Made by a program: the position numbers and the translations under genes
Assembly (NCBI GenBank): GCA_029210805.1
Contig: JARGGA010000004.1
Coordinates: 1 to 34,987, forward strand
DNA from: Candidatus Thorarchaeota archaeon
GTDB lineage: Archaea > Asgardarchaeota > Thorarchaeia > Thorarchaeales > Thorarchaeaceae
Reading direction: 5' to 3'
Length of the DNA stretch: 34,987 nucleotides
Part shown: in pieces, positions 6,670 through 34,848 of the stretch
How the letters are laid out: every line of letters starts with the position of its first letter
Numbering within the stretch: position 1 is the first letter of the stretch
Notes under the pieces: model-generated
Seen by the model: the letters and a program-made list of their open reading frames with translations, nothing else
Database searches by the model: none
What the model was told of the DNA's origin: nothing

Positions 6670-8187
6670 CTACTTCTTTTCCGCTTTTCTTATTGCTTCA
6701 GTAAGATTTGCGGCCATTCCTTGTGGTTCAAACCGTCTGGTTCTGATTTTCACAAAAGTTGGTACAGATACAGTTTCACCAACAAACAATGCCTCACCAA
6801 CCTCCAATGTGGTAATTGCATTCAATGAGGCGCGATCAATACCCTCACTCGACCTTCCTATATGGTCTAAATCATAGGGGTTTGTGCATCTTAGAATTGC
6901 TTGGTTGCTGCATTGACTCAGGACTGTCGTCGATAGCTTCACAGGCCGTTGTGTTATCAGGCATAGCAATGCAAAGAACTTTCTACCTTCTCTTGCAATG
7001 GTTTCAATTCGTGCTTTTGGTAGTGCTAGCTCTTGCCGGCTTTCTGGACAAAACTGATGTGATTCCTCTAGAACCAATAGAAATGGTGGGATTCTTCCCT
7101 GACGACGATAATAAAGCAGCTCTCCAGCCAAATGGGAGACAATAATTTGCTTCTTCTTAAGACTAACAAAGTCACTCAGATCAATCAAAGTGATTTTTCC
7201 AGGACGTATTATGTCTATAATCTCTGGAGAGGCCTCCTTACCGAAGAGACCCGTGTCTTCAAGGGTGATAAGCCATCCAACTAAAGCTTCTCTAGTGTTC
7301 TTGCTAATTGTTTCATCGTCTTTTACCAAGTTAATGATATCAGTAATTGTGTATCCATCTTTGAATCGAGTACGGATGTCGGATATTGAACGACGTAAAT
7401 CGCGTATCTGTACACCTGACATCCCTGCGATATAAGAGCTGAATGATTCTGCACTAAGAGAATGGACAGGAATTTGAATATGGGAACCTCGAATGTGTTC
7501 TACCTCGAATGCGCCCTCTGGAAGTCCTAGACTCTTTGGATCGACATCTTTGAGGTAGGAGTATTCTCCATGAACGTCCACGACTACTACACTAAGACGA
7601 CCTGTATCCTGAGACCTGGACAATATTTCTTCTAACATCACTGATACGAAGTAGCTTTTTCCAGCACCTGACATTGCCAAGATTGCTAGATGTTTGGAGA
7701 GCAATCGGTCAATTGAAGCTCTAAATTCCAAGTTATGGTTTGCTACCGTTCCAAGTTTCAGACCTTCATCCATATCTAGTTTGAGGAATTTTGCTAACAT
7801 TTCTTCATCTGCCCGTGTAACAATCGCTCCTGGAGATACTGTGGTATAAGGTCGAACTGTGCGTCCTTCTATCCAAAAGCCCACCACACGGGTTTGTGCG
7901 ATTGTATACTGCCAACGATTAGTCGGGAATATCGATCGTAAAGGCTCACCCCTTGATTGGTATTCTCTCACAGCCTCAGCATGCTGGAAGTATCGGTTAG
8001 TACGAACTAGGTCCTGTACTCTCGCAACAACAAGACCAAATTCAGCTTCAATAGTTACAAATTCACCACGGCGAACTGTGGTTTCATTGGTCCCCCCTTC
8101 CAAAACAAAGGAGAATTCAGAGACATTGGGACCTTCATTGGTACAAACTACCGTCCCAAGTTGATGTCTTTGTTGATGTGATTCCAT
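6670..8187 (-). CDS. herA: HerA-type DNA translocase/helicase
   Basis: Walker A MSGAGKSYFVSVMLEE, VVDVHGEY, LEESHQFCP, ITQRPVKLS; adjacent to NurA. Confidence 0.9.
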   Translation of the reverse strand: MESHQQRHQLGTVVCTNEGPNVSEFSFVLEGGTNETTVRRGEFVTIEAEFGLVVARVQDLVRTNRYFQHAEAVREYQSRGEPLRSIFPTNRWQYTIAQTRVVGFWIEGRTVRPYTTVSPGAIVTRADEEMLAKFLKLDMDEGLKLGTVANHNLEFRASIDRLLSKHLAILAMSGAGKSYFVSVMLEEILSRSQDTGRLSVVVVDVHGEYSYLKDVDPKSLGLPEGAFEVEHIRGSHIQIPVHSLSAESFSSYIAGMSGVQIRDLRRSISDIRTRFKDGYTITDIINLVKDDETISKNTREALVGWLITLEDTGLFGKEASPEIIDIIRPGKITLIDLSDFVSLKKKQIIVSHLAGELLYYRRQGRIPPFLLVLEESHQFCPESRQELALPKARIETIAREGRKFFALLCLITQRPVKLSTTVLSQCSNQAILRCTNPYDLDHIGRSSEGIDRASLNAITTLEVGEALFVGETVSVPTFVKIRTRRFEPQGMAANLTEAIRKAEKK

Positions 8188-23469: not shown

Positions 23470-23482
23470 TGGTGGGCCGGGG
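23470..23482. repeat. proximal direct repeat (att-like), within the tRNA-Pro 3' exon
   Basis: TGGTGGGCCGGGG, identical to 20475-20487. Confidence 0.75.
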
Positions 23483-23607
23483 GAGATCCTCACCCAACAG
23501 GGAAATCCTGAAGGGATTTGAACTCCCGATCTCATGCATGTTGGGATACTGACGAAAAGTTCGGTACCACCCCAAGCATGAATCATACCAATCTAGACTA
23601 CCGACCC
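23470..23607 (-). tRNA. tRNA-Pro(GGG) with two introns (37/38: 23539-23569, 31 nt; 59/60: 23487-23516, 30 nt), CCA encoded
   Basis: Acceptor GGGTCGG/CCGGCCC, anticodon stem CATGC/GCATG with loop TTGGGGT after splicing, T stem GGGAG/CTCCC with loop TTCAAAT after splicing, A73-CCA; both introns fold into a bulge-helix-bulge; spliced length 77 nt. Confidence 0.87.
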
Positions 23608-23630: not shown

Positions 23631-23704
23631 AACACTAGCCTGAGGCAAACTGAAGATAAAGATTGCCAAACACCGTTTGTTTCCACTTGAAAAAAGTGCA
23701 TATG

Positions 23705-34741: not shown

Positions 34742-34848
34742 TGGTGCGGCCACCGGGATTTGAATTCCCGCGGAACTCATTCTCTGGATTCCGTCACGGG
34801 TTGAAAGCTTGGGAAGCTTCCGTCCTAACCAAACTAGACAATGGCCGC
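34742..34848 (-). tRNA. tRNA-Gly(CCC) with probable ~30-nt T-arm intron (~34765-34794), CCA encoded
   Basis: Acceptor GCGGCCA/TGGCCGC, D arm GTCT..GGAC, anticodon stem GAAGC/GCTTT with loop TTCCCAA, TTCAAAT T-loop, A73-CCA; ~30 surplus nt between variable loop and T-loop fold as CCCG-TGA-CGGAA...TTCCG-CGGG-AAT. Confidence 0.78.

What the first reader, a model, noticed from the sequence alone, without database searches (positions are those of the whole stretch)
23470..23607. tRNA-Pro(GGG) gene broken by two introns, one in the T-loop (59/60), both with textbook BHB folds
Seen on the minus strand. Intron 1 (31 nt, 37/38): outer helix CATGC/GCATG, central TTGG/CCAA, bulges GGT and CAT, inner GGTAC/GTATC. 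Intron 2 (30 nt, 59/60): outer helix GGGAG/CTCCC, central TTCA/TGAG (one T-G wobble), bulges AAT and GAT, inner CCC/GGG, then CAGG/CCTG. Cutting after the second nt of each bulge gives a regular 77-nt tRNA-Pro ending in CCA. Known: noncanonical BHB introns are best documented in Thermoproteota. A dual-intron tRNA with a T-loop intron in this gene context is notable.
Basis: partly seen in the sequence, partly recalled or inferred. Interest (0 to 1): 0.7.

Follow-up and report, generated by a model that had tools for sequence, protein, structure and literature searches.

The report
Twice-interrupted proline tRNA gene in Thorarchaeia
This is the only gene found in this Asgard (Thorarchaeia) archaeon for one proline tRNA; it is interrupted by two roughly 30-nt introns that the cell's tRNA-splicing enzymes should remove, a known archaeal arrangement that turns out to be common but patchy in this group.

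Summary
The reading is correct to the base. Window 23607..23470 (-) is tRNA-Pro(GGG) with a 31-nt intron at 37/38 and a 30-nt intron at 59/60; both form exact bulge-helix-bulge (BHB) folds, and removing both gives a regular 77-nt tRNA-Pro.

The organism belongs to Thorarchaeia (Asgard). No other Pro(GGG) gene was found in its 93%-complete assembly. The genome encodes a catalytic EndA subunit, a second subunit lacking the catalytic His (an apparent (alpha-beta)2 enzyme), and RtcB. The catalytic subunit keeps the lysine tied to broad specificity in crenarchaeal enzymes.

Of 37 Thorarchaeia genomes with the gene, 21 have the T-loop intron and 16 have only uninterrupted T-loops. In this genome Pro(TGG), Pro(CGG) and Ile(GAT) have introns at the same site, and Gly(CCC), at the window's other end, has one at 53/54. 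The Pro(GGG) and Pro(TGG) introns are 22/30 identical, which suggests copying between genes.

Position 59/60 is known in other archaea, and abundant noncanonical tRNA introns were reported in two other Asgard classes in 2024. So this is a new member of a known kind; the patchy, possibly moving T-arm introns are the more interesting part. Splicing itself was not tested.

The parts
23570..23607 (-). tRNA-Pro(GGG) exon 1 (positions 1-37, anticodon GGG)
23539..23569 (-). Intron 1, 31 nt, at 37/38, strict BHB
23517..23538 (-). tRNA-Pro(GGG) exon 2 (positions 38-59)
23487..23516 (-). Intron 2, 30 nt, in the T-loop at 59/60, strict BHB
   Evidence: empty site in relatives
23470..23486 (-). tRNA-Pro(GGG) exon 3 (position 60 to encoded CCA)
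23655..23660 (-). TTTATC, TATA-box-like stretch about 50 nt upstream (inference by eye only)
34795..34848 (-). tRNA-Gly(CCC) exon 1 (positions 1-53): second T-arm-interrupted tRNA of the window
34765..34794 (-). tRNA-Gly(CCC) intron, 30 nt, at 53/54, strict BHB
34742..34764 (-). tRNA-Gly(CCC) exon 2 (position 54 to encoded CCA)

Best explanation
A functional tRNA-Pro(GGG) gene of a Thorarchaeia (Asgard) archaeon, transcribed as a precursor with two short introns (37/38 and 59/60), each of which folds with its exon borders into a BHB. The EndA heterotetramer cuts after the second bulge base on each strand, RtcB joins the exons, and the 77-nt tRNA reads CCC/CCU codons. Shown here: gene anatomy, in-silico splicing to a standard tRNA, genes for two EndA subunits and the ligase, empty-site alleles in relatives. 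Inferred: transcription, the actual cuts, and use of the tRNA. The T-loop intron is an element that is gained and lost in tRNA genes of this clade, and has probably been copied between tRNA-Pro genes in this lineage.
For: Exact BHBs at both introns. Double splicing yields a normal tRNA-Pro(ggg); the unspliced form is not recognised. No other Pro(GGG) gene in the genome by pattern (up to 3 mismatches) or by DNA similarity. Exons are strongly conserved across relatives while introns vary. Of 37 Thorarchaeia genomes with the gene, 21 have both introns, 14 only the 37/38 intron, 2 none; one of the 21 also holds a copy with only the 37/38 intron. T-loop introns vary with their pairings kept (29 distinct introns, mean folding z -2.1; pair table). 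EndA: two PF01974 proteins; the C328 protein is closest to Aeropyrum pernix EndA alpha (1.8e-41), with the catalytic His and the loop lysine K44 aligned; the C439 protein has SATANQL where alpha has the catalytic His. RtcB E = 3.7e-176. Own Pro(GGG) and Pro(TGG) T-loop introns are 22/30 identical; 0 of 20,000 shuffles reach this and it is the best of 178 between-isoacceptor pairs.
Against: No RNA data. In 19 relatives' genes the central helix is only 3 bp with a 5-nt 3' bulge, so the strict geometry is not the rule in the clade. The copy-between-genes step rests on one pair of 30-nt introns; the Pro(CGG) intron shows no such similarity. The assembly is 93% complete with 5% contamination, so a missed second gene cannot be excluded.
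Confidence: 0.92

Rival explanations
1. The gene is a decayed or mis-assembled pseudogene and another copy supplies tRNA-Pro(GGG).
For: The assembly is fragmented (699 contigs) and 93% complete; general tRNA finders miss the gene.
Against: All exon pairings are intact; the same two-intron form is found in 21 genomes; no other Pro(GGG) gene was found.
Confidence: 0.03
2. The T-loop intron is removed at 58/59 rather than 59/60.
For: Sequence slippage makes both cuts give the same mature tRNA here; in eight relaxed-form relatives (nine with L025) the base before T60 is G, which matches the empty-site loop TTCAAGT and implies 58/59 there.
Against: In the window gene the 4-bp central helix and 3-nt bulges place the cut at 59/60.
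Confidence: 0.1
3. The 59/60 introns of different tRNA genes are independent insertions at a favoured site, not copies of one another.
For: Pro(CGG) and Gly(CCC) introns show no similarity to the others; Ile only marginal; the same site is used in other Asgard families with unrelated introns.
Against: Pro(GGG) and Pro(TGG) introns of this genome are 22/30 identical, with inner-stem differences matched on both sides.
Confidence: 0.4
4. A split (trans-spliced) or permuted tRNA gene.
For: Such genes use the same BHB signals in other archaea (PMC3218864).
Against: All exons lie in order within 138 bases.
Confidence: 0.01

Closest known systems
Noncanonical BHB tRNA introns of Thermoproteales, e.g. 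Pyrobaculum islandicum tRNA-Pro(UGG) with introns at 25/26, 37/38 and 56/57 (PMC4090602)
   Same: Same isotype, several introns in one gene, canonical plus T-loop intron, BHB folds; 59/60 is itself a listed position.
   Different: Asgard host, anticodon GGG, 59/60 instead of 56/57.
tRNA introns of Atabeyarchaeia and Freyarchaeia (PMC11291895)
   Same: Asgard archaea with many noncanonical and multiple tRNA introns.
   Different: Other classes; the passages read do not treat Thorarchaeia introns or gain and loss at one site.
(alpha-beta)2 EndA of Aeropyrum pernix (PDB 3P1Z, 3AJV; PMC6379350)
   Same: Catalytic alpha with the catalytic His and the K44-equivalent lysine; a second subunit without the catalytic His.
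   Different: Asgard enzyme; the second subunit matches A. pernix beta only weakly (E = 0.034); activity untested.
tRNA intron transposition in Thermoproteales (Fujishima et al. 2010, as summarised in PMC4033280)
   Same: Similar intron sequences in different tRNA genes of one genome.
   Different: Only one clear pair here, at the same site of two isoacceptor genes.

Membership tests
Archaeal BHB tRNA intron | Exon-intron borders fold into a bulge-helix-bulge | tested here: met
   Both introns exact: 4 central pairs, 3-nt bulges
Archaeal BHB tRNA intron | Removal restores a standard tRNA | tested here: met
   77-nt tRNA-Pro(ggg) by ARAGORN after removal, nothing before
Archaeal BHB tRNA intron | Intron absent at the same place in relatives with conserved exons | tested here: met
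   16 of 37 Thorarchaeia genomes lack the T-loop intron in every copy found; one more has both forms
Archaeal BHB tRNA intron | Cut by EndA and ligated by RtcB in the cell | not testable with these tools
   Both enzymes are encoded; no RNA data
(alpha-beta)2-type EndA | Two PF01974 subunits, one catalytic, one lacking a catalytic residue | tested here: met
   Two proteins per genome in 41 of 47 family genomes; His present in C328 and absent in C439
(alpha-beta)2-type EndA | Loop lysine linked to broad specificity (K44 in A. pernix) | tested here: met
   Lysine aligned; its role is taken from PMC6379350
(alpha-beta)2-type EndA | Heterotetramer with broad cleavage activity | not testable with these tools
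   Needs purified protein
Transposing tRNA introns | Near-identical introns in different tRNA genes of a genome | tested here: inconclusive
   Pro(GGG)/Pro(TGG) 22/30 identical, 0 of 20,000 shuffles; Pro(CGG) not similar

The most novel reading that the evidence does not exclude
Thorarchaeia carry a mobile family of about 30-nt T-arm introns that copy between tRNA genes (Pro(GGG) and Pro(TGG), perhaps Ile(GAT)), tolerated because their EndA has the broad-specificity loop so far described as specific to Crenarchaeota.
Probability: 0.4. Interest if true: 0.5.

Novelty: new member of a known kind. Interest (0 to 1): 0.35.

Why it matters
T-arm introns hide tRNA genes from general tRNA finders: here Pro(GGG), Pro(TGG), Pro(CGG), Ile(GAT) and Gly(CCC) are missed or score low until spliced in silico, so Asgard tRNA sets can look incomplete. 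One orthologous gene with the intron present, absent or slightly shifted across 37 related genomes is a ready natural experiment on how archaeal tRNA introns are gained and lost. A crenarchaeal-type EndA in Asgard archaea bears on how broad-specificity splicing evolved near the origin of eukaryotes.

Tried and rejected
Pseudogene or assembly error: rejected (intact exons, same form in many independent assemblies, no second gene found). Split or permuted gene: rejected by gene order. Similarity of the T-loop intron to the 37/38 intron or to the Gly 53/54 intron: tested, not found. Several intron-allowing ARAGORN calls on precursors have odd identities or intron positions and were treated as misreadings. 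One parse (L173, G013) was set aside: it is a Pro(TGG) gene that my parser misread as GGG. No paper on Thorarchaeia tRNA introns was found, but only openly licensed papers are held, so that is weak evidence of absence.

Full report
What was claimed and whether it is there. Reading the strand gives exon 1 23607..23570, intron 1 23569..23539 (31 nt), exon 2 23538..23517, intron 2 23516..23487 (30 nt) and exon 3 23486..23470. Every helix and bulge in the finding is present. General tools miss the gene: ARAGORN, and Rfam at gathering threshold, report nothing; at a relaxed threshold RF00005 scores 21.7 bits against a cut-off of 29, because it accepts intron sequence as the T-arm. In-silico splicing settles it: unspliced, no tRNA; without intron 2, tRNA-Pro(ggg) with a 31-nt intron; without both, a 77-nt tRNA-Pro(ggg). 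Shuffling each intron gives an equally good BHB in about 0.13% (intron 2) and 0.25% (intron 1) of cases.

Where it is. Neighbours are archaeal housekeeping genes: a histone-deacetylase-family gene, a Hel308-like helicase, MCM, RFC large subunit, Orc1/Cdc6 and CTP synthase. The window therefore comes from Thorarchaeia, an Asgard class. The own genome is 4.03 Mb in 699 contigs, 93% complete with 5% contamination. The HDAC gene matches in 58 of 67 related stretches (many genomes counted twice), so these are largely orthologous loci.

Presence and absence. From a parse of the family's tRNA-Pro genes, Pro(GGG) was found in 37 genomes. In 21 it has both introns, in 14 only the 37/38 intron, in 2 neither; one of the 21 (G027) also has a copy with only the 37/38 intron. 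The only same-genus genome in which the gene was found (G002) lacks the T-loop intron. Uninterrupted loops read TTCAAGT or TTCAAAT (once TTCAACT), which is what splicing would leave. The T-loop intron is always 28-31 nt. The same site is occupied in Pro(GGG) or Pro(TGG) genes of other Asgard families (L040, L043, L049, L060). In Thorarchaeia, Pro(TGG) has it in at least 4 genomes and Pro(CGG) in 2, while most of those genes lack it.

The own genome. All three tRNA-Pro isoacceptors have the T-loop intron: GGG (window), TGG (G000:C459, from 21486, with a 30-nt intron at 37/38 as well) and CGG (G000:C650, about 6901-7007, no 37/38 intron); splicing restores each. tRNA-Ile(GAT) on C498 has a 30-nt intron at the same site and is recognised only after its removal. 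tRNA-Gly(CCC) at window 34848..34742 has a 30-nt intron at 53/54 with a strict BHB (CCCG/CGGG, bulges TGA/AAT, inner CGGAA/TTCCG; 5 of 200,000 shuffles reach it), and its spliced form is recognised. Relatives carry introns there with changed but still pairing inner helices.

Structure of the T-loop introns. Two forms exist. The window gene, own Pro(TGG) and four other genes tabulated have the strict form, with exon TTCA paired to TGAA or TGAG. Nineteen others were compared as a relaxed form: TTC/GAA (3 pairs) and a 5-nt 3' bulge, with the first two inner pairs standard in 19 of 19 through C-G, G-C, A-T and T-A types. In eight of these (nine with L025) the base before T60 is G, matching the empty-site loop TTCAAGT, so their cut is probably at 58/59 (inference). 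The window gene fits 59/60; a 58/59 cut would give the same mature tRNA.

Machinery. The genome has two PF01974 proteins. The C328 protein aligns over 180 residues with Aeropyrum pernix EndA alpha (1.8e-41), keeping the histidine that is changed in structure 3AJV (H133A) and the lysine at chain position 44. That lysine is held responsible for broad specificity (PMC6379350). The C439 protein has no histidine at the corresponding place. Two such proteins were found in 41 of the 47 family genomes. RtcB is present. By published rules only (alpha-beta)2 and epsilon2 enzymes efficiently remove relaxed introns (PMC6379350), so enzyme and substrates agree. This is inference from sequence; no activity was tested.

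Origin of the introns. The Pro(GGG) and Pro(TGG) T-loop introns of this genome are 22/30 identical without gaps; none of 20,000 shuffles reaches that, and it exceeds all 177 other comparisons between isoacceptors and all comparisons of this intron with those of other genomes. The inner-stem differences are matched on both sides (CAGG/CCTG against CTG/CAG). The T-stems of the two genes differ (GGGAG against CCCGG), so simple conversion of the whole 3' part is unlikely. Copying of the intron between genes, as reported for Thermoproteales (PMC4033280), is the likeliest reading. The Pro(CGG) intron shows no such similarity and Ile only a marginal one (p about 0.04-0.05, uncorrected), so how general this is remains open.

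Known or new. Position 59/60 is listed among archaeal noncanonical sites, and Pyrobaculum islandicum tRNA-Pro(UGG) has a canonical intron plus introns at 25/26 and 56/57 (PMC4090602). In Asgard archaea, 92-95% of tRNA genes of three Atabeyarchaeia and Freyarchaeia genomes have introns, often noncanonical and multiple (PMC11291895). Hence a new member of a known kind. What is added is the clade-wide presence/absence record at one site, the recurrence in all three tRNA-Pro genes plus Ile and Gly, the likely intron copy, and a crenarchaeal-type EndA in Thorarchaeia.

Noticed in passing
window 34742-34848 (-): tRNA-Gly(CCC) with a 30-nt intron at 53/54 and a strict BHB; the spliced form has one T52-C62 mismatch in the T-stem. 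Intron-bearing relatives vary at base 52 (A, G or T) but all keep G53.
   Followed up: partly
L225 (G000:C498, reverse strand): tRNA-Ile(GAT) with a 30-nt T-loop intron at 59/60; recognised by ARAGORN only after removal.
   Followed up: partly
L222 (G000:C182, reverse strand): tRNA-Tyr(GTA) that appears by eye to carry a D-loop intron in addition to one at 37/38; not found by ARAGORN.
   Followed up: no
L097 (G000:C338:300-1500): Dense array of about ten tRNA genes on an 8.5-kb contig, mostly of intronless length; may be viral or foreign DNA binned with this genome.
   Followed up: no
L226 (G000:C148:2968-3022) and L082 (G000:C624, distal part): Partial 5' halves of tRNA genes (Thr-like, and one starting GGGCCGGTAGATCAG); fragments, integration scars or split-tRNA halves.
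   Followed up: no
L223 (G000:C42:17344-17399): 3' part of a tRNA-Arg(TCG) on the same contig as an intact copy (C42:7859-7933); possible scar of an integrated element.
   Followed up: no
L173 (G013:C92): Pro(TGG) gene with a T-loop intron and an apparent intron in the variable region instead of at 37/38.
   Followed up: no
L058, L059 (G168, G169, another Asgard family): Pro(GGG) genes with about 30 extra bases just after the anticodon arm, suggesting an intron in the variable region.
   Followed up: no
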